From positions 1-26,326 of the IMG/VR virus record IMGVR_UViG_3300030390_001164: a DNA stretch of 26,326 nt; one strand, given 5' to 3'. This document shows, one piece after another, positions 151 through 25,379 of this stretch. The translations under genes and the position numbers were made by a program. The number at the start of each line of letters is the position of its first letter. The first letter of the stretch is position 1. The DNA comes from a virus. The notes below the pieces were generated by a model. That model had not been told where the DNA came from, made no database searches, and was given only the letters and a program-made list of their open reading frames with translations.

Positions 151-3100
151 TTATTTTTTATCTTGTAATTCTAATATTTTTTTAGCTCTGTCTTTCTCGT
201 ATTTTAAAGCTTTTATTTGTTTATCCGTTAAACCAAGTTCTGATAATGTTTTAACCTGCTCTGGCTTTCTTTGTTTCATAATAACCTCATATCTTTTTAT
301 GTAAACAATTTGTTCAGGTGTTTTACCTTCGTATTTTTTAGCTTCTTTTATTCTAGCTGCTTCTTCTCTTTTTAACTTAGCTCTTTCTTTTGCAGCTGTA
401 GCTCTGTCTTGTTTTGCTTCAATTTTTATTTCATCAAACTCTTCTATTTTTGCACCAACATCCCAAGCTCTATAACCTAAAGCTAAAGCTATTCTTTGCA
501 GTGTAGAGTTTCTTTGATCCATCATTTCTGATAAAGCTAAAAATTCATTCATAGCTCTTTCCAATGGTATGTTTGTTAATGCTTCTGTTGTTGAAGCTAT
601 AACATTATACTTAGGACTTAATACAACTCTGCCTTTATATGTAACATCCCAACCCATTTTTTCTATTTGATCTGATTGAAAGTCTTCTGTTTTTAAAGCA
701 TTTGATATTTTTCTAAGTTTTGAACCTATAGGTGGTGAAAGATTTAATGCTTCTAATATTACGTTTGCATTTTCTTTTCCAAAAGCACTTTTATCTTTTT
801 CTCTATAATAAGTATTAATAGTATTTTTAAGTGTTGCTACAATTGCTCCATAAACACCAGATCCTCTTAGTAAAGTATCTGTCATACTATTAAGTATTCT
901 ACTTTGTTTTAAGTCTTTTCTTCTTTGCACATCTTCATCTTCATCATCCTCATCCATACCTATAAATATAGCATTTTGTAAAGCTGCAAATATTAATCCT
1001 TGAATAGCACCGTAATAAACCATTTTAGACATGTTAGTTTTTTGATCACCTCTAACGTTTATAAAGTCTCTACTAGCTTTTTTAAATAACCTAGTAACTT
1101 GAGCTGGTGTGTTTTGAAATGCTAAAATTAATCTACCTAATATACCTGCTTGTTGCTGAGATATAAACATAGGATCTGCTGATTGCTGACTAACCTCTGA
1201 TGTTTCAGAAAAATCTTCAAAAGCTTTTTTAGAAGCCTCTTCCTCTGTTAATCCATCTTTTTTATAAGTGTTTAATCTGTTTCTATAAAACGTAGCACCA
1301 CCTGATGCAATAGCAAAACTATCCGCAAGTTGTGTAGGTGTAAAACCTATTTTAAGTAAATACGAAATCATTGCTTGTGCTTTGTTTGTAGCACCTCTAA
1401 CTGCATTAGCTATTTCTGCTTCGTTAACATCGCTTCTTAAACCTGCTCTTCTTTGTTTTAACTTAGGTGAGTTCCATAAAAATGCAAAATCTTTTATAAA
1501 CTGAGGAAAGTTTGCAAAAGCCATAGCTGCCTTTACAGGGTTATTATCACTCCAATTTAAGAAATTTACAGAAGATATGGTTTGTAACAATGCTGATTTT
1601 CTGTTAAAAAACATTATAGCACCAATAGAATTGTTAGTCCAGTTTAAAAAAGCGTTAGTAAGTTTATCTGCACCTGATGGCCTGTTTGTTCCGGTTCGCA
1701 TACGATACAAAGAATCTTCCATTGCGGATCGCCAGTTGCTACCTAAGGATGCTTCTAGCTTGTTTAAATTTTCTTTAGAAAATATAGCATCAGCGTTTGC
1801 ATTAAACTCTTCTAAGTACTGTTGTCTACCTACGTTGTTTGTAAAATTATTTAAATCAGATAATATACTTTGCACATCCCAATATGGATCTGGCTTGGCC
1901 CAATTTTTTTGTTTACTTACAAGCAACGCGCCTTCGCCAAACAAACTTAATTCAGGGTTTTTGTCTACAAAATCATTTAATTTTTTAGCATCACGTTTAG
2001 ATATACCAGGTATTTCATAACCTGCTTTTGTCCATAAACTAACTCTTATAGCTTGATCTTGTGTAAAATCTGTACCAGGAACTATTTTACCTAAATTCTT
2101 TTTAACGTTAGGAAACTTTTTAAGCAAAGCTTTATAGTCTTGTTTAAGCGTTTGCCTGTATACATCTATGCTAGCAACACCTTTTTGATACGGATCAATT
2201 AAATTCTTTTTAACCCATGCCATTTGTTGTTCACCTAAAGTTCCTCTAGTATAAAGATCATACATTAAACCTTGAAAGTCTTCCATAGATGGTGGAACAA
2301 ACGGTCTAAACTTACCTTTTTTAGCTCCACGTCTTTTAGCAACAATGTCTGAAAATACTTTTTTAGCATCAACACCTAATGTTTGCTCTATAATTTTATT
2401 AAATTGTGTATTTAATATTTTAGGATTAGTTGGCTTTGAAGCTTTAATTTTACTTTTTCTACCTTTATCAAGAACATTTTGTACTTCTATATGCGTAGTA
2501 ACTATGTCCATAGCTTGTATAGCTAATTGTTCTGCAATAGTGTTTCCTGTACCAATCATTTCATAAGAACTGAAATCAATACCACCATCAACAGAAGCAA
2601 CATCTTCATTATTATACCTTATCCAAGTTGTTAAGTTTTTCATAGTAAAAAACTCCTTAGGCATTTTTGCTATGTAATTAAACCAAGATGCTTTTAACTT
2701 ATTATCATCTAATTTTCTTAATTGTCCTTGAAAATAATTATCTTCAATAAAGCTAAAATTTTCTTTAACAGAATCATTGTCTGCTATATAAAACATTAAT
2801 TTTGCAATGTTGTTAGCTGGCATACTATGTTCTTCAACAAATAAATTACCTTTTCGTTGAGCTATTAAAGAAAAGAATTTTATAGGTGCCATTCTTCTAA
2901 TAATACCTCTACTCATGCTACTTGTAGCACCTAAAAATCCAGCCCACATTGCTCTTGCTTCAGGATCGTTTTTCATTGTTTTTGCCATAACATTAGCAAA
3001 ATCTTTAAGAAAAGGCATTTTTAATTTTTCGTTTGCTTTAAATTCTTTTGAATTAAAATGATTTCTTAATTGACTTGGAGACATCTCGGCATATTTACCT

Positions 3101-6100
3101 CTACTGTAATCAAAGTTTACAGGAGCAACAGGTGCTTTGTCATTAAAAAACTTAGAAGCTTCATCCTTTTTTTGTTTATCTGATTTGGGTGTTCCGTCAT
3201 CATTTAAAATATCTATACCTAAAGCTTCATATACATCATCTAAAGTTCCAAACATACTTCTAGGTCCTCCAGCTAATAACGAAGCCTCTAAAATACTTGG
3301 ATTTAACTCAGGTGCTATTTTTTTTATCCATTTACTTCTAAGATCTAAAAACTTGTCATCTTTAACAAATATAGTATCTTCACTTATGTACATAGACATC
3401 AACTCCTCATTAGTCGCTTTGTCATCTATAAAATATTCTCCAAAGGCATAAAACTCTCCATTTATAGTTTTTCCTTTTTTATCTTTAACAATATCAAAAT
3501 ACTTACCTGAATTAGCTCTAGTAGCTATACTTTGATCACTGCTAGGGTATTCTCGTTTTTCAAGTGTAACTCCTGCCTTTCTAAGTATTTTATTTAAATT
3601 AACTTTTCTTAATGCTTCACTAAAAGTCTGTAATTGAGTATTTAAAAGCTTACTAGGCATGTTACTAAAAACTAAATCACTAGTACCTCTTTTTAAATTA
3701 ACTCTTGCTGCAGCTGCAACTGGAGTTGTAATTTCTCCTTTAGCTTCTTTTTTATCTAAAACAGCACTAAGAGATCTGTTAGCCATTTGTTCAGCCACAC
3801 CTTTTAATAAAGCTTTTATAACTTGAGACTCTGAAGCTCTAGGAACATAATTGGGATCAACCTTACCGTCTTTAGTACCAATAGAAGCTTCGTAAACTTT
3901 ATTATTAAATTCTTTAGGTGTTCTTACATAGTTATTCCCTACTCTTTTAGGTGGATTGAAAAATATTTTTTGAATATTTCTACCTAAGTTCAAGGTTTCT
4001 CCACCAACTGTTGTTTGTTTTGGTTTTTTTGTTTTTGAATCCTCAATTATATTACCATCTCTAAGTATATTAACTTTTTGTGTTTTCTTAGAAGATTGAC
4101 CTAAAACTACATTTTTAATAAAAGGTCTTGCTGCTAACAATAATCTTTGAGCTTTTAGAGAATCTGGTTTATCTAAGTTTTGATTAGGATTTTGTAATTT
4201 TTTAACATCTATACCAACAATATCAGCAAGTATACCATAAGGTGTTACCGCCATTAATTCTTTGTTAGTTAAATTATCTTTAGTTATATCAATGTTTTTT
4301 TGTTTAGCTAAACTTTGTATTTCATTTTGAAAGTCTTTTGAAACCGTTTCAACATCAATATCAGGATTTGCTTTTTTAGCAAAATTCATTACATTAATAA
4401 TAGGAGTTACATCTGGTGTAGAATTTGTATTGGTATTAGAACCTGGATCTGCTATTTGCCTTGTGCTTGAATCAATAGAGGTAGTAGAGACTTTCTTTTT
4501 ATTTTTAATCTGTATATCTCCTGCAGCAAGTTCTATTATAGATTTACCAGTTACGTTTTTACCTGTTAACCAACCAAAAAAGCTTTCATTTAATGCTGGA
4601 TTAAATTCACTCATTGCTTTGTCAGATATTCTTTTTTTAACATCCTCAACATATGTTTCATTACCTTGCATATCTAAATAAGCTTGACTAACACCTGGTA
4701 ATTTTATTATAGAACCATCTAACGTAGGAGTTAATTCTATTAACATTTGTAAATTTCTTTTTTCTGGACTGTTTTTAAAATCTTCTTTACTGTTAAACTT
4801 TTTTGTACCGTCTTCGTTTGTTAGTTTAGTTGAGTAAGCATCTTCTCCTATAATAAATTTGCTATCAAATTGACTTTTTAAATCACCTGGAACTGGAACT
4901 AATGAAGGTTTTATTGGTCCTTTTTGTTCTTTTTCTGTATCAGCTGTACTAACTCTAGTAGAAACGTCTGCTTGTTTTTCTACAAAATTAGATAAAAAGT
5001 TATACATGTCATTACCACTGTTAAACGGATTTAATATTTCAGAAGCACCACCTGGATTCATCATGCTAAACATACCGTTTAAAAATTCTTTCATACCAGC
5101 AAGCCCAGCAAAATCACTTTGTTTTATATTACCTAAAACAATTGACTCACCAAAAATAGTTAATATTTCTTCATAATTAAGTTCACCATCTTTTTTATAA
5201 CTATCTATTCTATCTTTTATTTCTTTTGCCTGTTCTTGTGTTAACTGTTCTTTGTTAACCTTATCGTCTATTATATCAATCAAGCCAAGAGAAGCAATTT
5301 CAGCTTTTTTATTTAATGCTGGACTTTTACCAAATATATTTTTCTTAGCTATTTGTAAATGTATTAATTCATGTAATGGAGCTATGGCTGCAACAAGAGC
5401 ATCACTTGTAGTTCCATTTTGTAAGCCTCTAAAAATATTTCCTTTATTTATATAAACATTTCCATCAGGCAACACTCCAGCGTATGATTTTTCAATTTCT
5501 TCTACAGTTAAAGGTTCAATTTTATTTCCTTCTTTATCTACTTTGTCTTTATTTCTTTCGTTATATTCAGTAATAAAATTTTGTAAATTTTCACCAGTAT
5601 TGTCGGCTTCTATAGAAGTAGTTGTTCCACTAAATTGATGTTTTAATATATCATTAGCTGCTTCAAAAACTTTAATTCTTCCCGCGGCAACAACAGCAGA
5701 TACCTTTATACCTGTTCCGCTTCCTAAACCTTCTACATCAACATTAGCATTACCTGCTTCAATGTCTAGCGTTTGCCATTTTTGGTACTCTTTAAACGCT
5801 TTTGATTGTAGCAACTCACCTTGTTGTTCTCTTAAATCATTTATTTCTTTTTCAAACTGTTCTACTTGTTGTTGAAAACCTTCTAATCCAAACGCAGGAT
5901 CATTTATGAACTCAACATATGCAGCTTCTTTTGTTTTTAATTTACCACCTAAATCTATAAGATTGTCTCTTTCTAATTGAGACATCTTAGTCCACTTTTG
6001 CATTGACAAAAACTCATTGATAGAACCCATTTGAAACAAATTTTTTCTTTCATTTTTTTTGTCTTTTAATTCTTGCTTAGTAAATGAACCTGGTTTTTCT

Positions 6101-8571
6101 AATTCAAGCTCTAAATCGGTTTGTATATCATACAGTCTTCCAAATATTTTTTCTGTTTCTTTTCTATCTTTGCTAGTTGTTATTTCTTGCTTTAATGTAT
6201 TCCATATGTTTGTAACTTTAGATGGACCTTGAAGCAAAAGACTAGTGTATGCTATATTAGCCGCAAAGTCTTTATCTAAACCAGTAAAAACAGATATTTT
6301 ATTTTTTCTACCAAAATTATCTAATGCAACATGAGAAATATTAGTAACACTTTCCTCAACTAATTCTGTTGCTACTCCTTTTAATGTAGATCTTGCACCA
6401 TATAAACCTTTTTGCCATAAACTTAATTTACCAGCTCTTTCTGCTACAGTTCTAGCCGCATTAAAATCATTCATGTATCTCAATGTACCTAACTTTTCGG
6501 CATACATTTCTACAAAACCATAACCAATAGAATTAAATATTCTAAAAGCTCTTGAATTGTTTTTAGAATCTGTAAACTCATCTAGCTGCCCAAGAAGATT
6601 TTGTCTTTCTGTAAAAGGAAGACTTTTATCTTTTAATAATTCTTCTATTTTTAAAATTTGTTTATCAGCAATACTTCTAGTAAATTCTGAACTACCTAAT
6701 TGCCCACCAGCAGAACTAGTAAAAAATAAACCCATAGTAGTTCTTTGTGCTGTAAGTGCATTAGCTTTAGTTATATCGCTAGCAACTAACTTTGCTGTTC
6801 TACCTTTTAATTTAAATTTAGTAAGATTTTTAATAGCTCCACTTGAAATAAGTTTTGCAACTTTACCTGGCCCAAGTACTGCAGATATAGTTAAAGCAGC
6901 GTCAGCAGTCCAACTTTTAAACATTGTTCCTGCACTAAAAAAGAAATCATCATCATTTTTAACTTCATCAATAGTAGGTGGTTTAACAAATTCTCCTTGT
7001 CTATCTTGCATCAACTTATAATAATCCATACCCGCTGTTCTAATTAAATCAGCGGTTTCTTTATCTTGAAAAAGTTCATAACCTAAAGCAGCACCTTGAG
7101 TTAGCAATGTATAAGGGGCCAGTATATAATCTCTTTCTATATTAGCAAAAGTCTTATCTATCAAATTGTGATTAAGTTGCGCAGCACCCATAATAGCTGC
7201 AAAGTCATCAAACTTTAAAGCTTTTTCTTTTAATATTTTTGCGGTTTTATTAAGCTGATCATTTCTAAGGTTTATAGCTATAACTTCTTCGTTAAAACCT
7301 CTACCGTTAAAATCATCAATTAATCCATTAATTTTTTCATTAAATACGTTTAGTTGTTCATTTGCAATATTAGAATCATACTCTAAACCTAAACCTTCTA
7401 TTAAAGATTTGTTTTCATCAGAATAAAAATCTAAATAATTTTTTCTTTCTAAAACAGCTTCATCTATTTTTTTATTTAAAGCCCCAGATCTTTTATTTAA
7501 ATTATTTGCGTCTTTTTCTACTTGAAGCCTTGCATTGTCATAAACTTTTAACGCGGTTCCTAAGTCATTACTTATAGATTCAGGTGTTTGATAAACTTGA
7601 TAACCCGCTGCTTTAAGCTGCTTTGGAGTTGCATTACGCATTTTTCTTATTTCATCCGCCGCATAACCTGGTTCATTACTAAAGCCTCCACCAACTTTAG
7701 CGTTTTCCTTTGCTTTTTCTATGTTTTCAACTAATATTTTTTGATTAGGATAAAAGACAGAACTACTTTCATCTCCTTCATAAAACCAAGCTTCAACTCC
7801 TCTTATTATTTCTTGATAATTAAGTTCTTTGTTTTTATTAAGTCCTAAACCAGATATGTTATTATCTCTTCTAAATTCTCCTATAATACTATCAGCTCGT
7901 CTTTGTTTGAATTTATTTAATCCTTTGTTTATTAATATTTCATTTGCTTTAATTTCTTCTTCATCAAAAGTTTCTGGATCTAATAAACTTGCTTCTGTAA
8001 CTTTTAAAGGATCAAAATCTGCAGCTTTATATATTTCATAAACTTTATCTCCAACATTATTTCTTAATTCTGTTTCAGTTTTTAAATCTAATAAATCATT
8101 AAATTGTTTTCTAGCTTCATCTTTTACTAAAGTATCTCTATTTTGTTTATTAGAGAATTGATCTGAGTTTTCAATATTTAACTCTATTTCTTTATATTCT
8201 TTAAAAAGCTCAATATTTTTATCTCTTATTCCACCTATAGTACCTTTTTTAAATTGAGAATATTTCTCATCTATTGAAACATTTTCACCATCTTTTATGT
8301 CAAACATGTTGGCAGATACTTGATTCCAACTATTCTCTGTATTTCTAGTAGTAACCTCATCAACTAGTATAGTTCCTAGTTTTATAGCAAAAGCATCGCG
8401 AGAAAGACTATTTTTATTAACATTACCTTCTACTGAAACACTTGATAATATTTCAGGTTTTGCCCCTAAGTCTTCTACTCCAGCTGCTTTAGCTGTATCG
8501 CTTGCTTCTTTTGCTAAACAATCTTTATATGCTTGAGATTCTTTGTCTTTTATTTCTTCACAATTTGCCAT
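151..8571 (-). CDS. Giant internal virion (ejection/cargo) protein with HExxH metalloprotease motif, 2806 aa
   Basis: This one gene covers about a third of the window. The N-terminal ~550 residues are charged and helical. Hydrophobic patches follow near 560-600 (LTISAVLGPGKVAKLISSGA). A GVATELVEESVTNISHVAL segment lies near residue 727. A zincin-type motif, APLHELIHLQIAKK, has HELIH at residues 1067-1071 (DNA 5359-5373); candidate third ligands are E1134, E1135 or E1142. The centre (about 1270-2000) is mixed, with FFGWLTGKN and RRMAPIKFFS. The C-terminal third has SIGAIMFFNRKSALLQTI, then a hydrophobic helix YGAIQGLIFAALQNAIFIGM (about 2518-2537) before an acidic DEDDEDED run, and ends in a basic coiled coil. 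Size, location and mosaic make-up resemble T7 gp16-type ejection proteins or the 'polyvalent' phage proteins injected into the host. No lysozyme/transglycosylase or RNA-polymerase motif was seen. Confidence 0.78.
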   Translation of the reverse strand: MANCEEIKDKESQAYKDCLAKEASDTAKAAGVEDLGAKPEILSSVSVEGNVNKNSLSRDAFAIKLGTILVDEVTTRNTENSWNQVSANMFDIKDGENVSIDEKYSQFKKGTIGGIRDKNIELFKEYKEIELNIENSDQFSNKQNRDTLVKDEARKQFNDLLDLKTETELRNNVGDKVYEIYKAADFDPLKVTEASLLDPETFDEEEIKANEILINKGLNKFKQRRADSIIGEFRRDNNISGLGLNKNKELNYQEIIRGVEAWFYEGDESSSVFYPNQKILVENIEKAKENAKVGGGFSNEPGYAADEIRKMRNATPKQLKAAGYQVYQTPESISNDLGTALKVYDNARLQVEKDANNLNKRSGALNKKIDEAVLERKNYLDFYSDENKSLIEGLGLEYDSNIANEQLNVFNEKINGLIDDFNGRGFNEEVIAINLRNDQLNKTAKILKEKALKFDDFAAIMGAAQLNHNLIDKTFANIERDYILAPYTLLTQGAALGYELFQDKETADLIRTAGMDYYKLMQDRQGEFVKPPTIDEVKNDDDFFFSAGTMFKSWTADAALTISAVLGPGKVAKLISSGAIKNLTKFKLKGRTAKLVASDITKANALTAQRTTMGLFFTSSAGGQLGSSEFTRSIADKQILKIEELLKDKSLPFTERQNLLGQLDEFTDSKNNSRAFRIFNSIGYGFVEMYAEKLGTLRYMNDFNAARTVAERAGKLSLWQKGLYGARSTLKGVATELVEESVTNISHVALDNFGRKNKISVFTGLDKDFAANIAYTSLLLQGPSKVTNIWNTLKQEITTSKDRKETEKIFGRLYDIQTDLELELEKPGSFTKQELKDKKNERKNLFQMGSINEFLSMQKWTKMSQLERDNLIDLGGKLKTKEAAYVEFINDPAFGLEGFQQQVEQFEKEINDLREQQGELLQSKAFKEYQKWQTLDIEAGNANVDVEGLGSGTGIKVSAVVAAGRIKVFEAANDILKHQFSGTTTSIEADNTGENLQNFITEYNERNKDKVDKEGNKIEPLTVEEIEKSYAGVLPDGNVYINKGNIFRGLQNGTTSDALVAAIAPLHELIHLQIAKKNIFGKSPALNKKAEIASLGLIDIIDDKVNKEQLTQEQAKEIKDRIDSYKKDGELNYEEILTIFGESIVLGNIKQSDFAGLAGMKEFLNGMFSMMNPGGASEILNPFNSGNDMYNFLSNFVEKQADVSTRVSTADTEKEQKGPIKPSLVPVPGDLKSQFDSKFIIGEDAYSTKLTNEDGTKKFNSKEDFKNSPEKRNLQMLIELTPTLDGSIIKLPGVSQAYLDMQGNETYVEDVKKRISDKAMSEFNPALNESFFGWLTGKNVTGKSIIELAAGDIQIKNKKKVSTTSIDSSTRQIADPGSNTNTNSTPDVTPIINVMNFAKKANPDIDVETVSKDFQNEIQSLAKQKNIDITKDNLTNKELMAVTPYGILADIVGIDVKKLQNPNQNLDKPDSLKAQRLLLAARPFIKNVVLGQSSKKTQKVNILRDGNIIEDSKTKKPKQTTVGGETLNLGRNIQKIFFNPPKRVGNNYVRTPKEFNNKVYEASIGTKDGKVDPNYVPRASESQVIKALLKGVAEQMANRSLSAVLDKKEAKGEITTPVAAAARVNLKRGTSDLVFSNMPSKLLNTQLQTFSEALRKVNLNKILRKAGVTLEKREYPSSDQSIATRANSGKYFDIVKDKKGKTINGEFYAFGEYFIDDKATNEELMSMYISEDTIFVKDDKFLDLRSKWIKKIAPELNPSILEASLLAGGPRSMFGTLDDVYEALGIDILNDDGTPKSDKQKKDEASKFFNDKAPVAPVNFDYSRGKYAEMSPSQLRNHFNSKEFKANEKLKMPFLKDFANVMAKTMKNDPEARAMWAGFLGATSSMSRGIIRRMAPIKFFSLIAQRKGNLFVEEHSMPANNIAKLMFYIADNDSVKENFSFIEDNYFQGQLRKLDDNKLKASWFNYIAKMPKEFFTMKNLTTWIRYNNEDVASVDGGIDFSSYEMIGTGNTIAEQLAIQAMDIVTTHIEVQNVLDKGRKSKIKASKPTNPKILNTQFNKIIEQTLGVDAKKVFSDIVAKRRGAKKGKFRPFVPPSMEDFQGLMYDLYTRGTLGEQQMAWVKKNLIDPYQKGVASIDVYRQTLKQDYKALLKKFPNVKKNLGKIVPGTDFTQDQAIRVSLWTKAGYEIPGISKRDAKKLNDFVDKNPELSLFGEGALLVSKQKNWAKPDPYWDVQSILSDLNNFTNNVGRQQYLEEFNANADAIFSKENLNKLEASLGSNWRSAMEDSLYRMRTGTNRPSGADKLTNAFLNWTNNSIGAIMFFNRKSALLQTISSVNFLNWSDNNPVKAAMAFANFPQFIKDFAFLWNSPKLKQRRAGLRSDVNEAEIANAVRGATNKAQAMISYLLKIGFTPTQLADSFAIASGGATFYRNRLNTYKKDGLTEEEASKKAFEDFSETSEVSQQSADPMFISQQQAGILGRLILAFQNTPAQVTRLFKKASRDFINVRGDQKTNMSKMVYYGAIQGLIFAALQNAIFIGMDEDDEDEDVQRRKDLKQSRILNSMTDTLLRGSGVYGAIVATLKNTINTYYREKDKSAFGKENANVILEALNLSPPIGSKLRKISNALKTEDFQSDQIEKMGWDVTYKGRVVLSPKYNVIASTTEALTNIPLERAMNEFLALSEMMDQRNSTLQRIALALGYRAWDVGAKIEEFDEIKIEAKQDRATAAKERAKLKREEAARIKEAKKYEGKTPEQIVYIKRYEVIMKQRKPEQVKTLSELGLTDKQIKALKYEKDRAKKILELQDKK

Positions 8572-8580
8572 AAATTAAAT

Positions 8581-9678
8581 TTAAGATACTGCTTGTTGTT
8601 CTTCTTGTAATTGTTCTTGACCTTCAGCTTGTTCTTCAGCTACAACCTCTTCTTGTGCAACTGGTTCTTCAGCTTTTTTTCTAGGAACACCTATAGGCAT
8701 TTCATCGTTTATTTCTTTTTCTAAAAACCATTTAGTATAGTCTTCTTTAAATCTTTTCTTTTCATTATCTCTTAATGCTTTAGATGGTTTTAAATAATGA
8801 TTTGTAACTTCTGCTAAAATATTATTATTAAAAGCAATAGCAGGATCAGAAGACTCTTGCATTTCTAAAATACCATTTGATATTTTTTCCATTTCTAATT
8901 TAAAAACACCATTAGAAGCAATAGATTCTTTGTCTATACCTACAAAGTCTTGAACTAAGCCTCCGTTTAATGGTTTTTCATAAAGATCTAAACTACCATC
9001 TTCTTTTGTTTTTTGATACGTTTTTGTAACACCACCTGTTAATACAGTTTCTTCTCCACCCATTTTTTGTTGTTCAAACATTTCAGGATTAGATTTTTTA
9101 AACCCATTGTTTTTATCATTGACATCAGGAATACTAACAAATATATCCTGTGTTTCAGAAAGTTTATTTAATTTGCTAATATAAATTCTTTCTACAAAAT
9201 CACCATCTTTATTATAAATATCCCAAGCTAATTTTCTAATATCATTATCTTTAGCTATAATTTTTACAATACCAGGAAGATCTTCATTTATTATATTTAT
9301 AGCTTTATATCTACTATATGGTGTACCCATTATATCTAAACCACCTTGTATTCCAGATTTCATAACAGACTCCATCCATACATCAGCATTGGAAGCTAAA
9401 TTTTCTAAACCTTCTCTTACAACTTCCACGCTATTAGCAATGTCTTCTGCGTACTGTCTGTCAGCGCTAGGATTTGTGCTAGTTCCATTATCTAAAGCCA
9501 ATTGAATGTCTGCAAATATTTTTATATAAGGATAATATAATTCATTATAATTAACTGGAGGAACTACAGTTTCTTCATAGCCTAATTGATATGACATAGT
9601 AGACTGCAATTCTTCAATCTCAAATTGACATTCTTCTATTAATCTTTTGTTTTCTAGTAGTTTTTCTTTTAATGCCAT
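8581..9678 (-). CDS. Unidentified virion-associated protein, 365 aa, acidic C-terminal tail
   Basis: I cannot assign a family. The first 35 residues are a charged helix (KEKLLENKRLIEECQFEIEE). Residues 40-110 look helical, with YNELYYPYIKIFADIQLALD. Residues 110-200 are mixed, including GIQGGLDIMGTPYSRYKAIN and IVKIIAKDNDIRKLAWDIYN. The C-terminal 40 residues are almost wholly Glu, Gln, Ala and Val, a low-complexity acidic tail. No membrane segment or enzyme motif is visible. It lies 9 bases upstream of the giant internal-protein gene and 10 bases after the 244-aa gene, so it is co-transcribed with probable ejection proteins. It could be an internal virion protein, a chaperone for the giant protein, or a tail component. 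Only the coding call is firm. Confidence 0.8.
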   Translation of the reverse strand: MALKEKLLENKRLIEECQFEIEELQSTMSYQLGYEETVVPPVNYNELYYPYIKIFADIQLALDNGTSTNPSADRQYAEDIANSVEVVREGLENLASNADVWMESVMKSGIQGGLDIMGTPYSRYKAINIINEDLPGIVKIIAKDNDIRKLAWDIYNKDGDFVERIYISKLNKLSETQDIFVSIPDVNDKNNGFKKSNPEMFEQQKMGGEETVLTGGVTKTYQKTKEDGSLDLYEKPLNGGLVQDFVGIDKESIASNGVFKLEMEKISNGILEMQESSDPAIAFNNNILAEVTNHYLKPSKALRDNEKKRFKEDYTKWFLEKEINDEMPIGVPRKKAEEPVAQEEVVAEEQAEGQEQLQEEQQAVS

Positions 9679-10428: not shown

Positions 10429-12048
10429 TTAGTATGATGATTCCACAATATCAGATGATACTGAAAATAGTTCTTTTTTTGTGCTGTTACTTCCTTTATT
10501 GTCAAGCTTCATTTTAATAGTTGCAAAAAATCCTTTTATACCTGATACATCTGCTCCAAACAAAACTTCTCCAGAAGTAGCAACAGAATTATTTACTAAA
10601 TTAGCAAAGTATTTGTTTTCTTTTCTTTTAAAATTGTTTACAAAAATATTAGCTTGTAAAGCTTGTAAATCAGCAAACGATGTTGTAGCTTTAGTTATTG
10701 GAAATGATACATCTCCTGAGCTAGCTTTTACACCATAAGGAACATCAACACCATTTATTGTTTGGCTTCCACCTAATAATTCCCAACCAGTTGCCCCTTC
10801 ATAATTAATAGTTTTAAAGTTTTTAACAAGTGAAGGTTGTGCATTTAATATTAAAGTAACATACGAATCTGATATTATATTGTAAAATTTTCCATAGTTT
10901 CCAGGTTGATTATGTCTCCACAAACTTCCTTTATTAAAACTATAAAAACTACTATTTAAGCTAACCATATAAGTAGGTCTGTAGCTGAAAAAACTAGTCC
11001 AACCTCTTACGTCTTCATCAAATGATAAAGTGCTATAACTAGACGGTGGATCATTGACAACGCCTAAAGTTTGTATAGATACTACATAGTTTTTAGTATG
11101 TATATCATAAGCTCCTACAACTCTAATATTAGTTTTAGTTAGTTCATCTCTAAAAAAGTCATGCATACCATAACTAGATATTTCAGTTATACCATCCATA
11201 GATAATCTACATATACAATTTCTTTTTCTATCTGCAAAATATTTTCTATAACCATAAACAGCAAAGCTATATGGATCTTTTGATATTCCATACTCACCAG
11301 CATAAGCAACAACAGCACCAATTACTAACCTACCTGATGTAGTAAGTGCAGCTCCTTCAGCGGTATATATAGCATCTTTATCTATTAATGCTTTACTTAC
11401 TTTGTCTTCTTGAAATATAATTAAATTAGTATCTTCAGCATATAATCTTTGTATAGAACCTTGTGCAGGATCAAGAGATCTTGTTATGCTTGAACCTACA
11501 GAAAACTGGTTTGTGTTGTTAACACCTGTTCTTGAATTAAATATACCAGAATATATTATTGAACTAATTCTATGTTGTTGTGCAAACGTATCTTCAACTA
11601 AATAAGCTTTAACACCAAAATCAACTGATGTATTATTATATCCTCCTCTTATTCTAGCTTCTTCTATATACCAGTCTTGACTTGGTGTAGCTGTACTTGA
11701 ATCATAATCCTGAGGTATATTATCAAAATTAATTATTGAACCAAAAGTAATGTTAGGTGTTCCAGTTACGGCTGGATTAGGCGCTGCTGCAACAACAAAA
11801 GATGTATCACTTATTCTTGATGTTATATAACTAGAATAATTTATTGTATCACCCGCACCACTAGTATATGTAAAAGTAATTTCTTGGCCTACATTCATTT
11901 GAACAGCGGTAAGGGCGGATCCTATTACAAAAGTAGTTGTACTATTAGAAACATATGCGCTTGTTGAATTTGGAGCAACATCTGTAATAGTCTTGATTTT
12001 TTTTAACCAGAATGTGTTAAAGTAATTTACTTCAATTGTTGCTGCCAT
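10429..12048 (-). CDS. Tail hub/nozzle beta-propeller-type protein, 539 aa
   Basis: It follows the 1476-aa gene after 32 bases. Residues 1-20 (YFNTFWLKKI) are followed by a Thr/Ser/Val-rich insert (about 25-105). The main body starts at DWYIEEARIRGGYNNTSVDF (125-144). Typical repeated beta-strand segments follow: TNLIIFQEDKVSKALIDKD, GEYGISKDPYSFAVYGYRKY (251-270), and CRLSMDGITEISSYGMHDFF (280-299). Next comes LSFDEDVRGWTSFFSYRPTY (341-360), an F-x-E-x-x-x-G-W-T-S-F pattern common in T7 gp12/P22 gp10-like nozzles. The C-terminus is a small Ser/Lys-rich beta region. The two genes together seem to contain what single nozzle proteins hold in relatives. It would form part of the DNA exit channel below the connector. 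The stop is TAA, 5 bases before the next ATG. Confidence 0.72.
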   Translation of the reverse strand: MAATIEVNYFNTFWLKKIKTITDVAPNSTSAYVSNSTTTFVIGSALTAVQMNVGQEITFTYTSGAGDTINYSSYITSRISDTSFVVAAAPNPAVTGTPNITFGSIINFDNIPQDYDSSTATPSQDWYIEEARIRGGYNNTSVDFGVKAYLVEDTFAQQHRISSIIYSGIFNSRTGVNNTNQFSVGSSITRSLDPAQGSIQRLYAEDTNLIIFQEDKVSKALIDKDAIYTAEGAALTTSGRLVIGAVVAYAGEYGISKDPYSFAVYGYRKYFADRKRNCICRLSMDGITEISSYGMHDFFRDELTKTNIRVVGAYDIHTKNYVVSIQTLGVVNDPPSSYSTLSFDEDVRGWTSFFSYRPTYMVSLNSSFYSFNKGSLWRHNQPGNYGKFYNIISDSYVTLILNAQPSLVKNFKTINYEGATGWELLGGSQTINGVDVPYGVKASSGDVSFPITKATTSFADLQALQANIFVNNFKRKENKYFANLVNNSVATSGEVLFGADVSGIKGFFATIKMKLDNKGSNSTKKELFSVSSDIVESSY

Positions 12049-12080: not shown

Positions 12081-15000
12081 CTATGATATAGATCTTGGAA
12101 AACCATAAAAAGTGTTACAAGCTTGCACAAAGTTTTGTGACCAAAGGCTTGGCTCATAAACTTTAGCATTTGTTGCTACAAATCTTGATGAAAAGATAAA
12201 TTTAGTATCACCACCTGTTGTTCCGTGGTAAGGTGACGAACCATGTGTTATAAAGGCTCTATAATTACTTACACCACTTCCAGCATCTGCAAATGTAATA
12301 GTAGACGTAAGAGCGCTGGTGCTGTAAAATTGAGTTACATATTTACCGTAAGGCACGTGAGAATATCCATATGTTGTGCTACTTACAAACGAAGGGCAAA
12401 AGAAATTATTTCCTCCATTAGCTGCTGTACCTATTTTATATTGATATGATTGAACAACTCCAGCGGCCGAAGGATTTGTTGTAGGAGCAAAATCTACTCC
12501 GTTTTCAATTACACAAGTACTATAGTATAAGTCATTAGAATTAACCCATGCAGCTAAAGCATTTACTTGAGCTGGTGCCGTGCTGTTGTCTGCGTCTGCA
12601 GCAACAATAAGATATTCACCCGTTTGATTATATGCTAAAACAAACTGCTTGTAATATGTTCCAACACCTCCAGGTCCAGCCGTAGCATTTGTACTTACTG
12701 GCATTTTTAAACCTTTTCCACCGTTAGCAGTGTTGTCAAATGTAATATTATTTAAATCAACTATAGCCGTCCAGTTAGAACTGCTATTTGCTCTATGATA
12801 TACTCTCCAGTAAACTTCACCCACAAGTCCAGAAGAAGGAGTGCCCGATGTATAAGTCATGTCAGCGTTTAAAGATAGTGATAAAGTTCCTTTTGTTAAA
12901 GCGCTACCTAGTTTAAATATTGTATTAGTTTCAGAAGCATCACCAGTTTGTGCTGTGCTTGGAATTGCAACAGCGGTTGATCCGTTAAAAAAATCACTAG
13001 CACTTAAAGTGTTATCAGATAAATACCAAACACCTGTAATACCAGACGAAGCATTAAACTTAGTTCTTAAAGCTTTTTGAGCAGCAGCAGGAGCAACCAT
13101 ATCAATAGGTCCAGTTTGACAACCAGATCTTATACTTGTATTAGCTTGTATTGGCCCTACATTTATTATTTGGTTTTTATTAGGACTAGTTGATAAACTT
13201 CCTGTGCCAGCGTTACCACTAGCATCAACAGCATCTTCTACTTTTAAAACTAAAGTGTGAGAACCTGAGGGCGCGTTGTTTGTTGGTGTTTGAGAAATAT
13301 TACCATTGTTAGGATTTATTTGAAAAGCAGGTGAACCATTTCCACCAGTTGGATTACCTGAAACAATAGACCATTTTAAACCTAACAACTTATCAGCTGC
13401 AGATCCAGAGCTACCGTTTACGGCTGTAGTATTTTGGCCAGGCATACCACTAGGAGAACCACCTTCCTCATCAACAGTTATACTTATTGTCGGTAAAGGG
13501 TTTTGAGTAAAAGTTGGTATTGCATTTTCTAATTTAACGTTTGCTATTGTTAACGTTGGAGTTGCACCTGGTGCTAAACTAGAAGAAAGTGATAATATTT
13601 CTATAAAAAAGCTGTAAACATCTTGTGAATCACTATCGTTTATAAATGTTTCTGTATTTTTTAATTGTATTGTATATGATTTTGTTGTACTATTTTGAAC
13701 TATTTTAAATAAAGTATCAGGCGGGTTAGTTTGTCCAAAATCTATTTGGTTTTGAATCAATCCAGTTGCTACAGATGTATAGTATGCACTAATTATTTTT
13801 GTTGGATGTGATGCGTTAAACGGTACGCCTTCGTTTGATACAGGAAAAAAAGGATCAGTTAGTGAATGACCAGCAACATCACTTTCTATAAATTGAAAAT
13901 TATCAGCTGTAAAAGCAACAGGTGCGTCGGAGCCAGTAGCTTCATCAGCATTTAAATCTGCAATTAAACCTACAGTATTTGTTTCCCAAAATATATCTAA
14001 AAGTGAATCATCAGGATCAGTTTCATATATAGCTAAAAAGGGTTCCATAGTACCCGTTAATACACCTATTTGTTTAGACGTAGATAATCTTCCTATTAAA
14101 GGTTTTGTGTCTAATTGATATAGATTAGCTATGCCTGTGGCATTTAAATTAGATATATTCATGTTTGAATCATCAGACGTAGCTATGCTTACTGCTGTGT
14201 CTGTTAATATACCTGGGAAAAATTGTACATTTGTAGTTGCTGAATTGTTTTGAACTCTACCGTGTAGTTGAACAGAACTTCTAAACTGTCTTTGTTGATC
14301 AGAAACTTCGTTTAAATCTCTAGGAACTTTATTTATATTATCATTAATTAAAACAATATTAGCTGTTTTGTTGTTTTCGTTTAAAGGAAAAGCAATATCA
14401 CCTGCATCTATATCAGGATAACCATTTAATATACCAGGCAAATATACATTGTAATAATCTTGCTCTGTTTGTTTTACAACTATTTTGTAAGAATACCAAC
14501 CTATAGGATTTATATCATATGAAAATTTTATATCTGCTGATGAACCAAGAAGAGTATTATTTGAATAGCTAGAGTTTACTCTACCATCTGTAGGCACAGT
14601 ATATACAGCACCACTGTTTGTTACAGTACCAACTTTAACGTAATCTATATATTCACCTCTTAAGTAGTCTCCTTCTGTAGGTACAGTCACATTAGATGGC
14701 GTGTTAGAATTATCAAGAGTAAATTGATATTGCGTATCTGAAATAACTGTTGGAGCACTTGTTATTGCAAAACCCGTAGAATTAGTTGGGATTGCATAAA
14801 GCCCAGGTTTACCTTCGGTAAAATTAGGATATTCTGTTGTTGTGCTTGTTATAGGTTCTGTAACTGAAATCTGTAATGTATCTCCAAGCCAAGATTTTAT
14901 ATCTGATTCAACACTATTGTAAGGAGAAAATAAAGTTGAACCTAAGTTAGGTTGTGTTTTTCTTACTGAAGATAAAATAACAGGTGATGTTCTACCATAT

Positions 15001-16511
15001 TTATCAGAAAGAACAAAACCAACTTGATAATTTCTATTTTGTTTTAACGAGTGGTTAGGATATTCAACCCAGCTATTATTATTTTTTCCACCTTTATCTA
15101 CAACTTGAACATCATATTGAATTGATTCAGGTGCTGTATATGCGTTTCTAAAATTACCATACATAATTCTATTACCTGCAGTTTCCTGACTTAAAGCTCT
15201 TACTGGTACAACATCATATACTCTAGTTGTTTGATCTGATGGTAAAGTTTTGTATGGTTTACGTGACTGATAGTTATAACTAAAAATATTATTAGTGGTA
15301 TCAGCTGTTATATTACTATTGCTTAAGTTTTCTAGCACTTTTATTGAAGCACCATCAGATTCTTTATATAAAATGTCAATAGAAGATATTTTATAAACAC
15401 TACTTAATTGGTTTATTAAACAAGGTAAAGTTATTAACAACTCTATGTTATTAACATTGTTTTCCATCCAATCCAATATGGTACTCCTATACGCATCGTC
15501 TTCGTTGCCGTTAATAAAATAACCTTTTTGTTTAGGTATATATGCGATTTGTGTAAACGGAGCCATTAAAGAATATTCTCCATCATCAAATCTATATCTA
15601 TAGCTAAACCTAACAAACTTACTCTCTAGATAATCAGGATCTCCAGGCCAAGTAGCGTCTGAAGATTTATTGGTCATTGTAGATATAAGAAATGTAAATA
15701 TATCACCAGCAACAGGAGCTGTAATAGCTTTAGACAAGGTAACTGTTGTTATTTCATTAGGCGCAGAACCACTTTTAACAGCACTTAAAACCGTTATATA
15801 ATCAGAACTAGCTACTTTTACTGTTCCTGTAGAGTTAGTACTCATTAACGACATGCCGGGTAATATGTTATCGTTCTTGCTAACAACAAAAGTTGTTGTA
15901 GTAGGTGCTGGGCTAGCTAATACCGTTCCACTAGCTTTTTTAAATAAATTAATAGGCAGGTAAGGATTGTATTTAGCAACACTTAATTGATCTTCATTAG
16001 TGTAGTAATTTGATAATCCACTGTCTGGACTTATGTTTACTTTTCTAGGAGAGTTTCTATTATCAGTAAAGAACAATAAATTTTCTATTAAACTTACTTG
16101 TATTGGATTTGTTGTAGAAAAATTTAAAAATACATTATCAACTATAACATCCGCATAAGTAGCTCCAGGAGTAAACGCATAAATAATACATCTTTTATTA
16201 GAAGGAGTTGTAGTTGGTAAAGTATCTGGATTTGCGTCTGTATAATTAGTAGAAAATATATATAGTTTACCCGTATACTCATCTGACAAATATCCAATAA
16301 CAACCATGTCATTAGGTAAGGTAGGTGTTATTAAACCTGTAGCAGTCATAAGCGTATTACCTAAAACGTTTTCTACTGAACCTATGTCATCTTCCTCAGA
16401 CTTACCAACAGATATATTCTGCGCATCTCTATACTCGCCGTTAGGAACCAACCTATCGTCCAAGTCTTTATTCATCTTGGACTTTAGAAAACTATTCTTT
16501 ATTTCTGCCAT
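12081..16511 (-). CDS. Large tail-nozzle/stabilization-type protein with cadherin-like domain, 1476 aa
   Basis: The N-terminus (KSKMNKDLDDRLVPNGEYRD, then AQNISVGKSEEDD and SVENVLGN) matches the opening of P22 gp10/crAss-like stabilization proteins, which form the short-tail nozzle. A conserved-looking block is FVRFSYRYRFDDGEYSLMAP (299-318), preceded by an apparent inserted Thr/Ser-rich module (about 196-274) that contains ILPGMSLMS. Further beta-rich sequence runs to about 850, including SLLDIFWETNTVGLIADLN. Residues about 995-1118 look cadherin-like, with AFQINPNNGNISQTPTNN and HTLVLKVEDAVDASG. Residues 1119-1476 form a separate Gly/Ser/Asn/Tyr-rich domain with four Cys, possibly an adhesin or receptor-binding part. 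No signal peptide or membrane helix is seen. It probably works with the next gene's product at the tail tip. The nozzle call is fair; the adhesin role is inference. Confidence 0.72.
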   Translation of the reverse strand: MAEIKNSFLKSKMNKDLDDRLVPNGEYRDAQNISVGKSEEDDIGSVENVLGNTLMTATGLITPTLPNDMVVIGYLSDEYTGKLYIFSTNYTDANPDTLPTTTPSNKRCIIYAFTPGATYADVIVDNVFLNFSTTNPIQVSLIENLLFFTDNRNSPRKVNISPDSGLSNYYTNEDQLSVAKYNPYLPINLFKKASGTVLASPAPTTTTFVVSKNDNILPGMSLMSTNSTGTVKVASSDYITVLSAVKSGSAPNEITTVTLSKAITAPVAGDIFTFLISTMTNKSSDATWPGDPDYLESKFVRFSYRYRFDDGEYSLMAPFTQIAYIPKQKGYFINGNEDDAYRSTILDWMENNVNNIELLITLPCLINQLSSVYKISSIDILYKESDGASIKVLENLSNSNITADTTNNIFSYNYQSRKPYKTLPSDQTTRVYDVVPVRALSQETAGNRIMYGNFRNAYTAPESIQYDVQVVDKGGKNNNSWVEYPNHSLKQNRNYQVGFVLSDKYGRTSPVILSSVRKTQPNLGSTLFSPYNSVESDIKSWLGDTLQISVTEPITSTTTEYPNFTEGKPGLYAIPTNSTGFAITSAPTVISDTQYQFTLDNSNTPSNVTVPTEGDYLRGEYIDYVKVGTVTNSGAVYTVPTDGRVNSSYSNNTLLGSSADIKFSYDINPIGWYSYKIVVKQTEQDYYNVYLPGILNGYPDIDAGDIAFPLNENNKTANIVLINDNINKVPRDLNEVSDQQRQFRSSVQLHGRVQNNSATTNVQFFPGILTDTAVSIATSDDSNMNISNLNATGIANLYQLDTKPLIGRLSTSKQIGVLTGTMEPFLAIYETDPDDSLLDIFWETNTVGLIADLNADEATGSDAPVAFTADNFQFIESDVAGHSLTDPFFPVSNEGVPFNASHPTKIISAYYTSVATGLIQNQIDFGQTNPPDTLFKIVQNSTTKSYTIQLKNTETFINDSDSQDVYSFFIEILSLSSSLAPGATPTLTIANVKLENAIPTFTQNPLPTISITVDEEGGSPSGMPGQNTTAVNGSSGSAADKLLGLKWSIVSGNPTGGNGSPAFQINPNNGNISQTPTNNAPSGSHTLVLKVEDAVDASGNAGTGSLSTSPNKNQIINVGPIQANTSIRSGCQTGPIDMVAPAAAQKALRTKFNASSGITGVWYLSDNTLSASDFFNGSTAVAIPSTAQTGDASETNTIFKLGSALTKGTLSLSLNADMTYTSGTPSSGLVGEVYWRVYHRANSSSNWTAIVDLNNITFDNTANGGKGLKMPVSTNATAGPGGVGTYYKQFVLAYNQTGEYLIVAADADNSTAPAQVNALAAWVNSNDLYYSTCVIENGVDFAPTTNPSAAGVVQSYQYKIGTAANGGNNFFCPSFVSSTTYGYSHVPYGKYVTQFYSTSALTSTITFADAGSGVSNYRAFITHGSSPYHGTTGGDTKFIFSSRFVATNAKVYEPSLWSQNFVQACNTFYGFPRSIS

Positions 16512-22991: not shown

Positions 22992-25379
22992 TTAAGACAC
23001 AAACTGTTCAATATCTATTCCACCTTGTTTTTGTTCAAAGTTTGTAGGTAAAGAATCGTTTTGTCTTTGGCTAATCATTTCTGATTGCTGTGTTGCTTGT
23101 ATTTTTGTTCTTTGATCTTTACGATCTTCTATTTCTTTTTCTTTTTGTTTAGTAACGTCAATATCCATTTTCTTTAACTTGACGTCATACTCAAACTCTT
23201 GAGCCATAAGCTCTCTTTTAATTTCAGCTTCAGCTTGCATTCTTTGTATTTCAAATTGAGATTTTGATTGTTCAATTTGACTTTGTGTTTCTGCTAAAGC
23301 TTGTTGTTTTTCAACTTCTTGCATGGCAGCAGCTTCGGTAGCTTGCTGATTAGCTTGAGATTGAGACTCAATAACTTGTTGTTGCTGAGCTTGATCTTGC
23401 TCTTGTTTTTTAACTCTTTTGTATTTTAAAACTTGATTTGCTAATGTAAGGTTTTTAATCTCTCTAATGTCAATAGCATCTTCAAGATATATTTGACCTT
23501 GTTGTAAAGCCATTTGTATATTTTGCTCAAGCATTGCTTTTTCTTCTTCTTCAGGTTCTAAATCTAAATAGATACCAAAATCATATAAATGTAATTTTTG
23601 TATTTCTTCTAAAGTAGCTACATTAAATTTACCTATAGTTCCTAGTAGCGCAGCGTTTGTTAAATCAAACTGTAACATGTCTGCTACTCTTAAAGATATA
23701 TTTTCACAAGTTCTAAGTGTTAAATATAAACTAGATGTTAGTATGTGTTTTGTGGCAGTGTTTGAAGCGTTTGCTGCCATTTTTTGTAAACCAACTAACG
23801 AATCTTTTTCAGGTGCCGAACCATCTCTAGCTTCGTTAAGACCAGTAACATCTCTTATCATTTGTAAATAATACTGATAAGTATTAATTAATGATTGTAT
23901 TTTACCATTAGCACTAGAAGTTTGTAATTCTTGTATTGGCACTTTACCTCTATTAGGATCTCCATCTTGTGTTAAGCTTCTACCAACTATACTACCAGTT
24001 TGAAAATACATGTTCAAAGCCTCTTGTGGATTATAGTTTGTTCCATTACCTAAATCAACCTCAGCTAAACCATCAACATCTACAAACACACCGTCTGGAA
24101 CCATTCTAGCTATTACCTGTTGCAGTTTAAGTGATGCAAGCTGTATCATATCAGCAAAACCTGTAATACGTCCTACAAGTGAATCTATACGCCCTTGATA
24201 CATATGAGGTGCTACTATGTTGTAGTTCATATTTACCTTTGTAAGATCACTTTCAGGTCTTGTCATATTTTCCGAAAGCTTCCAGTCTAACATCATTTCT
24301 AATCCCATAACTTTAGCACCTGTAAATAAAACTTCTATGCTTCTTGATACTCTGTCAAAATTATCACTAGGTGGTGGATTAAATGTATCTGGTTTTTCTA
24401 GTATTTTTTCTAGTCCTTGTTCTGTATATTTTACTTTAAAAACTTGATCAATATAAGTTTTATATTCAAAATATAAAATTTGAATCATATCATTATCAGA
24501 ATTAGGTCCTCTTAAATAACCTTGTCTTCCTGGATATTTAGCAATACGAGATAATTCTTCGTCTGTAATGTTTGGAAATTCTTTTTTTAATTCTGGTAAC
24601 GTAATAGACTTTACTTCTCCTACGTAATATAAATCTTGAAAATTAGGATCGTTAGTATATGAATAAACTAGATTTGAAGGATTTACATAGTCTATAACAA
24701 CACCTTCAGATTTATTAAAATTAGTTTTGCAAGCTCCAATACCTATTGTAACAATATCTTCTACTACTCTTTTATTGATTAAATCATATTTATTAAAAGC
24801 AAGTATACTATTTATAACTTCTTCTTCAGCTATTTCAACAGATTGTTTATAGCTTAATTGCATATGAACCTCTAACTCTTCTTTATTTTTAGGAAGATTA
24901 TCAGGATCTAATGAGTGATATAAATTAACACCAATATTTTGTTTAATACTATCGAGTAATGGTTTAGCCATTGTATCTCTCATTATAGAATTAGCATATG
25001 ATGTTCTTTGTTTTTGAGAGTATGGATCTTGAGCAAAAGCTTTTATCTCATAATCTTTTGATGCTATACCATTAACTACTATATCTATAAACTTAGGTAT
25101 AATAGGTACTGGCTTCCAGTCTAAATTTAAATAAGATAAATCACCATTAATAGATAATTCATCTTTGTATTTTTGTATAGGTTGCTCTGCTCGAGCGTAT
25201 AATCTAAGTCTATTAAAATTTTGATAACCAGTCATCCATCGACTGCTGTTTATTCTACCACCCCTAAACCATTCATTTTCAATAGCTTGACCTACCTGTA
25301 AACCGTATTCCCAACTTCGCTTTTCCGCCTCAGGTACCACCTGACTAGGGAAAGAACTATTACTAGTTGTTTTAATCAT
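22992..25379 (-). CDS. Portal protein, 795 aa, with long Gln-rich coiled-coil C-terminus
   Basis: This gene follows TerL with no gap and precedes the scaffold and capsid genes, the classic portal position. The protein would form the dodecameric ring at the capsid vertex through which DNA passes. The N-terminal half holds WKPVPIIPKFIDIVVNGI (about residues 87-104), a segment I associate with large crAss-like and related portals. The centre (about 380-560) is mixed helix and strand and contains DVTGLNEARDGS. Near residue 613 begins a helical region with LEQNIQMALQQGQIYLEDA. From about 660 to 770 it is a highly charged, Gln/Glu/Lys-rich predicted coiled coil with a QQQQ run. Portals of this lineage are long (700-900 aa), so the length fits. 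The ATG at 25379 is the first one available after the TerL stop. No Shine-Dalgarno is seen; the leader is A/T-rich. I am confident of the portal call and less sure of the lineage. Confidence 0.88.
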   Translation of the reverse strand: MIKTTSNSSFPSQVVPEAEKRSWEYGLQVGQAIENEWFRGGRINSSRWMTGYQNFNRLRLYARAEQPIQKYKDELSINGDLSYLNLDWKPVPIIPKFIDIVVNGIASKDYEIKAFAQDPYSQKQRTSYANSIMRDTMAKPLLDSIKQNIGVNLYHSLDPDNLPKNKEELEVHMQLSYKQSVEIAEEEVINSILAFNKYDLINKRVVEDIVTIGIGACKTNFNKSEGVVIDYVNPSNLVYSYTNDPNFQDLYYVGEVKSITLPELKKEFPNITDEELSRIAKYPGRQGYLRGPNSDNDMIQILYFEYKTYIDQVFKVKYTEQGLEKILEKPDTFNPPPSDNFDRVSRSIEVLFTGAKVMGLEMMLDWKLSENMTRPESDLTKVNMNYNIVAPHMYQGRIDSLVGRITGFADMIQLASLKLQQVIARMVPDGVFVDVDGLAEVDLGNGTNYNPQEALNMYFQTGSIVGRSLTQDGDPNRGKVPIQELQTSSANGKIQSLINTYQYYLQMIRDVTGLNEARDGSAPEKDSLVGLQKMAANASNTATKHILTSSLYLTLRTCENISLRVADMLQFDLTNAALLGTIGKFNVATLEEIQKLHLYDFGIYLDLEPEEEEKAMLEQNIQMALQQGQIYLEDAIDIREIKNLTLANQVLKYKRVKKQEQDQAQQQQVIESQSQANQQATEAAAMQEVEKQQALAETQSQIEQSKSQFEIQRMQAEAEIKRELMAQEFEYDVKLKKMDIDVTKQKEKEIEDRKDQRTKIQATQQSEMISQRQNDSLPTNFEQKQGGIDIEQFVS

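What the first reader, a model, noticed from the sequence alone, without database searches (positions are those of the whole stretch)
5359..5373. HELIH metalloprotease motif buried in a 2806-aa probable internal virion protein
APLHELIHLQ fits the active-site helix of zincin metallopeptidases and is preceded by a G-x-V-Y-I-N-K-type strand as in many such domains. A protease inside a protein that is probably packaged and injected could mature capsid or ejection proteins, open the host envelope, or attack a host target. The sequence shows the motif; the delivery role is inferred from gene order and size.
Basis: partly seen in the sequence, partly recalled or inferred. Interest (0 to 1): 0.68.

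Follow-up and report, generated by a model that had tools for sequence, protein, structure and literature searches.

The report
Zinc protease inside phage ejection protein
A very large protein that this marine phage probably packs in its particle and injects into the bacterium contains a zinc-protease domain, and about a hundred related phages all keep one in the same place; protein-cutting domains of this kind in injected phage proteins were already known, but this widespread group seems not to have been described.

Summary
It is not chance: the protein has 8 histidines, and 0.0016 HExxH motifs would be expected.

In a 40-sequence alignment of the region (one close relative at 74% identity, the rest 14-23%), the only invariant columns are H1067, E1068, H1071 and E1135: the zinc ligands and catalytic base of a gluzincin. 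AlphaFold2 on it (pLDDT 75) gives the zincin order: helix, three strands, HExxH helix, Glu helix. Fold searches matched no solved zincin, so the fold rests on conservation and secondary structure.

All 95 distinct full-length relatives (IMG/VR) carry HExxH, against about 1.4 expected in total. The protein is last in a conserved three-gene cassette after the tail 'muzzle'. It and the first cassette protein are homologous to Cellulophaga phage gp101 and gp99, found in phi40:1 virions by MS/MS. That supports a giant ejection protein.

Most likely role (inferred): processing itself or partner ejection proteins. A host-directed effector is the main rival. Zincins in injected 'polyvalent' proteins and N4 vRNAP are known; this is an undescribed family of a known kind.

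The parts
151..8571 (-). Giant cargo/ejection protein, 2806 aa, last gene of the structural cassette
   Evidence: ORF. Syntenic giants in phi38:1, phi40:1, elemo, MW202828 and Panino. N-terminal region homologous to phi38:1 gp101.
4972..5727 (-). Zincin-like metallopeptidase domain, residues about 949-1200
   Evidence: A6 alignment; AlphaFold2 model pLDDT 75.3, pTM 0.65
5446..5457 (-). Third (edge) beta strand, residues 1039-1042, within DGNVYINK
   Evidence: DSSP of model; 'IxINK' in the A6 consensus
5341..5409 (-). Active-site helix, residues 1055-1077
   Evidence: model helix 107-129
5359..5373 (-). HELIH: H1067 and H1071 predicted zinc ligands, E1068 predicted general base
   Evidence: invariant in 40 of 40 aligned sequences
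5167..5169 (-). E1135, predicted third zinc ligand, on helix 1133-1145
   Evidence: invariant in 40 of 40; model helix 185-197
6412..6843 (-). N-terminal conserved region, approx. residues 577-720, shared with phi38:1 gp101 residues 390-532
   Evidence: HMM made without phi38:1, E 2e-11; no shuffled control listed. The limits in the window protein are approximate.
457..2412 (-). C-terminal conserved domain, residues 2054-2705, with one hydrophobic segment (2521-2539)
   Evidence: iterated HMM, 116 of 127 proteins; hydropathy; A4 alignment
8581..9678 (-). Second cassette protein, 365 aa, position of phi40:1 gp100
   Evidence: gene order; sequence homology found only to L001
9689..10423 (-). First cassette protein, 244 aa, homologous to phi38:1 gp99 and elemo gp20
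   Evidence: jackhmmer: 71 relatives in the same position, phi38:1 gp99 2e-20, elemo gp20 1e-18
10429..12048 (-). Crassvirus muzzle-like protein, C-terminal part
   Evidence: PF25729 E 3.1e-7, above cut-off; phrog_14478
12081..16511 (-). Muzzle-like protein, N-terminal part, on a separate gene
   Evidence: phrog_14478 positions 1-184
22992..25379 (-). Portal protein
   Evidence: phrog_6547 E 8e-145

Best explanation
The gene encodes the giant ejection (cargo) protein of a short-tailed, crAss-like phage probably infecting Bacteroidota. Shown by sequence: residues about 949-1200 are a zincin metallopeptidase domain with ligands H1067, H1071 and E1135 and base E1068. The domain sits between an N-terminal region shared with another virion giant and a C-terminal 650-aa domain conserved in all close relatives. 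Inferred: the protein is packaged, leaves through the tail ahead of or with the DNA together with the two preceding gene products, and refolds in the host envelope or cytoplasm. There the zincin cuts the giant itself (or its partner ejection proteins), separating the N-terminal ejection half from the downstream cargo and C-terminal half. The step not shown is the cleavage and its target.
For: Motif far above chance. Only H, E, H and E invariant over 40 sequences. Zincin element order in the model. hhalign of A6 against six other zincin groups of these marine giants gives 94-100% probability, and 95.5% for elemo gp18; controls reach at most 3.1%. Present in 95 of 95 full-length relatives, so it is retained as a core part. 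Purifying selection, dN/dS about 0.19 in the domain. Virion evidence: phi40:1 gp99, gp100 and gp101 by MS/MS, with homology to gp101 and gp99. Three-gene order (about 225 aa, about 430 aa, giant) in 59 of 75 loci, like T7 gp14-16 and N4 gp52-51-50. Iyer et al. 2017 (PMC5512222) propose autoprocessing for such domains and report that P1 DdrB is processed before packaging.
Against: No cleavage product is known. N4 vRNAP, the best-studied giant with such a domain, is packaged unprocessed (PMC5512222). phi38:1 gp101 and Panino's giant have no HExxH, so the wider family can do without it. No conserved cleavage site was identified. Foldseek and VIA-align found no known zincin, and ligand geometry could not be measured.
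Confidence: 0.5

Rival explanations
1. The zincin is a host-directed effector: after injection it cleaves a host protein (defence, transcription or envelope), like the effector role proposed for some polyvalent-protein metallopeptidases.
For: The domain lies in the fast-evolving half of the protein and occurs in several diverged types at the same place. In L002 the N-terminal part, zincin included, is replaced by a diverged version while the C-terminus stays 90-100% identical over most of its length, as expected of arms-race exchange. Some relatives carry other candidate effector domains (AAA_33/zeta-toxin-like kinase). PMC5512222 lists this option.
Against: Retention in 95 of 95 relatives, nearly always as a single copy, is more than expected of an accessory effector. 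No host substrate is known.
Confidence: 0.3
2. The zincin acts during assembly, as a maturation protease for capsid, scaffold or ejection proteins inside the particle.
For: It is probably packaged. P1 DdrB is processed before packaging (PMC5512222).
Against: The giant is the last gene of the structural cassette and probably present in few copies (inference). No processing of capsid proteins is documented for these phages in what was read here.
Confidence: 0.12
3. The fold is kept for structure only: a zincin-like domain that binds zinc or nothing and does not cut.
For: N4 vRNAP is packaged full length although its HExxH domain is conserved (PMC12633501 describes the C1 domain without showing activity).
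Against: The catalytic base E1068 is as invariant as the ligands over 40 sequences; a purely structural zinc site would not need it.
Confidence: 0.08

Closest known systems
Zincin-like metallopeptidase (MPTase) domains of phage polyvalent proteins (Iyer et al. 2017, PMC5512222)
   Same: HExxH helix, Glu on a later helix, three strands and an N-terminal helix; embedded in a giant injected protein. Relatives of the window protein also carry the form with an Asp three residues after HExxH that is described there (for example L060, L122, L126).
   Different: No Pfam, PHROGs or NCBIfam model matches the window domain significantly. The family here is from marine, flavophage/crAss-like podoviruses and is universal and nearly always single-copy in the close relatives.
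Phage N4 virion RNA polymerase gp50, C1 domain (residues 2124-2375)
   Same: Largest ejection protein, last of three genes. HExxH domain with H2228, E2229, H2232 and invariant E2310 over 7 Schitoviridae sequences, followed by a large C-terminal domain.
   Different: The window protein has no recognisable RNA polymerase domain. Profile comparison of the zincins gives only 60% over the strand-plus-motif region.
Cellulophaga phage phi38:1 / phi40:1 gp99-gp100-gp101
   Same: Same gene order. gp101 shares the N-terminal region, gp99 is homologous to the 244-aa protein. All three are in phi40:1 virions by MS/MS.
   Different: gp101 is 1691 aa, has no HExxH and no detectable C-terminal domain of this kind.
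Crassvirus phicrAss001 cargo proteins gp45-gp46 and RNAP-associated proteins (PMC10172136)
   Same: Cargo genes follow the muzzle gene; proteins are stored in capsid and tail and are thought to be ejected partly unfolded.
   Different: No protease is mentioned in that paper; homology of the cargo proteins was not tested here.

Membership tests
Zincin metallopeptidase (gluzincin type) | HExxH on a helix | tested here: met
   H1067-E1068-H1071 invariant in 40 of 40; model helix 107-129
Zincin metallopeptidase (gluzincin type) | Third acidic zinc ligand on a downstream helix | tested here: met
   E1135 invariant in 40 of 40, on model helix 185-197; ligand distances could not be measured
Zincin metallopeptidase (gluzincin type) | Three strands with an N-terminal helix before the active-site helix | tested here: met
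   secondary-structure order H11-31, E36-39, E83-85, E91-94, H107-129 in a pLDDT 75 model; pairing of the strands into one sheet not inspected
Zincin metallopeptidase (gluzincin type) | Overall fold matches a solved zincin | tested here: inconclusive
   no significant Foldseek match; best VIA-align Z 5.2, an unrelated helical protein
Zincin metallopeptidase (gluzincin type) | Zinc binding and proteolysis | not testable with these tools
   needs bench work
Polyvalent protein (Iyer et al. 2017) | Several enzymatic or effector domains in one delivered polypeptide | tested here: inconclusive
   only the zincin is recognised in the window protein (one search finds no Pfam domain at all); relatives add AAA_33/zeta-toxin-like kinase domains
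Polyvalent protein (Iyer et al. 2017) | Delivered into the host with the virion | tested here: inconclusive
   virion presence supported by homology to MS/MS-detected phi40:1 gp101 and gp99; injection itself not shown
Polyvalent protein (Iyer et al. 2017) | Large-polyvalent-protein-associated (LPD) domains | tested here: inconclusive
   no LPD Pfam match for the whole protein or the C-terminal alignment
N4-type virion RNA polymerase | Single-subunit RNA polymerase domain | tested here: inconclusive
   no Pfam match in the whole protein at E 0.1; no fold prediction of the remaining regions
N4-type virion RNA polymerase | Homologous zincin (C1) domain | tested here: inconclusive
   hhalign 60% over 34 columns, strand plus HExxH in register; single-sequence controls at most 3%
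crAss-like podovirus structural cassette | Muzzle, portal and terminase of that type | tested here: met
   PF25729 above cut-off; phrog_6547 portal, phrog_6681 terminase; membership of a named order was not tested by phylogeny

The most novel reading that the evidence does not exclude
The zincin is a dedicated protease of the DNA ejectosome: after the genome has passed, it cuts the giant and its partner proteins, releasing cargo and dismantling or sealing the channel. That would answer how short-tailed phages avoid leaving a permanent hole in the host envelope.
Probability: 0.15. Interest if true: 0.75.

Novelty: new member of a known kind. Interest (0 to 1): 0.45.

Why it matters
Giant ejection proteins are essential but poorly understood. 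Here about a hundred marine phages keep one protease domain in the same place while almost everything around the four catalytic residues changes. That argues for a conserved proteolytic step in phage entry or cargo release. It also defines a family that current profile libraries miss, with a cultured relative (Flavobacterium elemo phages) in which the step can be tested.

Tried and rejected
Chance motif: rejected. First AlphaFold2 job on residues 1000-1290 with 6 sequences: poor (pLDDT 46), probably because the construct lacked the N-terminal helix and first strand and the alignment was shallow; its fold search was meaningless. Foldseek against PDB and BFVD and VIA-align on the better model gave no significant zincin match; the top viral hit, an LPD-domain protein at E 0.13, is not significant. 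Profile of A6 against PDB sequences: nothing relevant. Pfam, PHROGs and NCBIfam on the domain: only scattered weak hits, among them two to Peptidase_M78 at E 0.012 at best. Direct search for the window zincin in bacterial genomes: none. The zincins of the Gundel and Manatee Spring giants could not be linked to the window's by profile (15% and 8%). Three apparent exceptions without HExxH (L089, L097, L137) are C-terminal fragments whose upstream ORF carries the motif. Phylogenetic placement of the phage, and structure prediction of the rest of the protein, were not done.

Full report
Observation. The minus-strand ORF 151-8571 encodes 2806 aa. HELIH is residues 1067-1071, exactly window 5359-5373. 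The protein has 8 histidines; composition predicts 0.0016 HExxH motifs, and 7 of 5000 shuffles contain one. So the motif is real and improbable by chance.

What the phage is. The window is a 26.3-kb virus record. It carries, all on the minus strand, the end of a terminase (phrog_6681), portal (phrog_6547), a head protein (phrog_13704), further virion proteins, and a crassvirus-muzzle-like protein spread over two genes (PF25729 above its cut-off in the second), followed by genes for 244, 365 and 2806 aa. The portal's relatives are phages of Bacteroidota: Flavobacterium elemo, Maribacter Panino, Cellulophaga phi38:1, Tenacibaculum Gundel; Calle (phi38:1 group) and Gundel are podoviral by microscopy (PMC8776804). 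In phi38:1, phi40:1, elemo, MW202828 and Panino a giant gene stands in the same place.

Virion location. In phi40:1, gp99, gp100 and gp101 are annotated from experimental MS/MS proteomics; phi40:1 gp101 is 99.9% identical to phi38:1 gp101. An HMM built from the N-terminal region of the window protein and five relatives, without phi38:1, hits phi38:1 gp101 residues 390-532 at E 2e-11, and no shuffled control was listed. The 244-aa protein is homologous to phi38:1 gp99 and elemo gp20 and to the protein two genes upstream of the giant in 71 relatives. The order of about 225 aa, about 430 aa, giant holds in 59 of 75 loci. T7 (gp14, gp15, gp16) and N4 (gp52, gp51, gp50) have three ejection proteins in a comparable arrangement (N4 genes; PMC12633501). 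Presence in the virion is therefore well supported for the family; injection is inferred.

The domain. Scans with C-terminal pieces brought in about 110 further loci with giant proteins from IMG/VR contigs. Window residues 949-1231 aligned with the zincin region of 39 of them share, in all 40, only H1067, E1068, H1071 and E1135; one close relative is 74% identical to the window, the others 14-23%. A six-sequence alignment had already picked out the same four residues and three others. AlphaFold2 on the 40-sequence alignment (pLDDT 75.3, pTM 0.65) gives helix 959-979, strands 984-987, 1031-1033 and 1039-1042, the HELIH helix 1055-1077 and the Glu helix 1133-1145. This is the order given for polyvalent-protein zincins by Iyer et al. 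(PMC5512222). The claim rests on conservation and element order.

Distribution. Of 95 distinct giants longer than 1500 aa and complete at the 5' end, all have HExxH (94 exactly one); composition predicts 1.36 over the whole set. Three shorter ORFs without it are C-terminal fragments; the upstream ORF has it. The motif lies a median 1191 aa before the C-terminal domain. Several zincin types occupy the slot, among them one with an Asp three residues after HExxH, as Iyer et al. describe for phages. Profile comparison unites the types: A6 against six other groups of these giants 94-100%, against elemo gp18 95.5%, with 40 control segments at most 3.1%. The Gundel and Manatee Spring zincins were not linked (15% and 8%). 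Against seven N4-type vRNAP zincins the value is 60% over 34 columns, suggestive only. phi38:1 and Panino giants lack HExxH, so the wider family can do without it.

Evolution. Between the window and L001 the domain has dN/dS about 0.19 (0.124/0.658). L002 shares the first 24 residues and the C-terminal third (mostly 90-100% identical beyond residue 2100) but has a diverged N-terminal part with another zincin. Exchange of the N-terminal part between close relatives is the simplest reading. Some relatives insert an AAA_33/zeta-toxin-like kinase domain between zincin and C-terminal domain.

Mechanism. Retention in every close relative, a single copy, an invariant catalytic Glu and a place between an N-terminal region shared with another virion giant and a conserved C-terminal domain are best explained by a proteolytic step in the work of the protein itself: cutting the giant or its partners during or after ejection. 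This is an inference (about 0.5). A host-directed effector (0.3) fits the fast evolution and exchange; assembly protease (0.12) and a structural role (0.08) are less likely. Iyer et al. already list autoprocessing, processing in the head, and host-directed action as options, and note that N4 vRNAP is packaged unprocessed while P1 DdrB is processed. The N4 authors point out that the ejectosome must be regulated or dismantled after DNA entry (PMC12633501); a protease built into the giant is a candidate for that, which is the novel reading offered here without direct evidence.

Novelty. Zincins in injected phage giants are known; membership in that kind is well supported. The family itself has no significant Pfam, PHROGs or NCBIfam match, and searches of the held papers found no description of it; subscription papers were not covered. 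It is a new, large family of a known kind.

Noticed in passing
10429-12048 and 12081-16511: The muzzle-like protein seems split over two genes: the 1476-aa protein matches the start and the 539-aa protein the later part of phrog_14478. L001 has two genes of the same sizes; phi38:1 has one gene of 1324 aa.
   Followed up: partly
L002 2-8053 versus window 151-8571: The N-terminal 1300-1600 residues of the giant are replaced by a diverged version with another zincin, between conserved ends.
   Followed up: yes
L041, L044, L068, L081, region between zincin and C-terminal domain: P-loop kinase domain (AAA_33/zeta-toxin family, E 1e-8 to 1e-12) inserted. In some other relatives a HAD-phosphatase-like sequence stands just before the C-terminal domain (seen by eye); the window seems to keep only a remnant.
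   Followed up: partly
L097 7505-7507: In-frame TGA between the zincin half and the C-terminal half of the giant, with an ATG a few codons later: a natural gene split, a recoded stop or a sequencing error.
   Followed up: partly
L001 about 17250-17446: Sequence unrelated to the window at the contig end, inside the C-terminal domain; it may be a small inserted domain or an assembly artefact.
   Followed up: no
MW202828.1 741-12320 (L007): A 3859-aa giant with two HExxH motifs, annotated as 'reticulocyte binding/rhoptry protein', which is almost certainly a wrong name.
   Followed up: partly
NC_055854.1 48851-59935 (L008): Flavobacterium elemo phage gp18, 3694 aa, carries a zincin linked to this family (profile 95.5%), in a cultured phage-host pair; it also has a DUF3293 domain.
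   Followed up: partly
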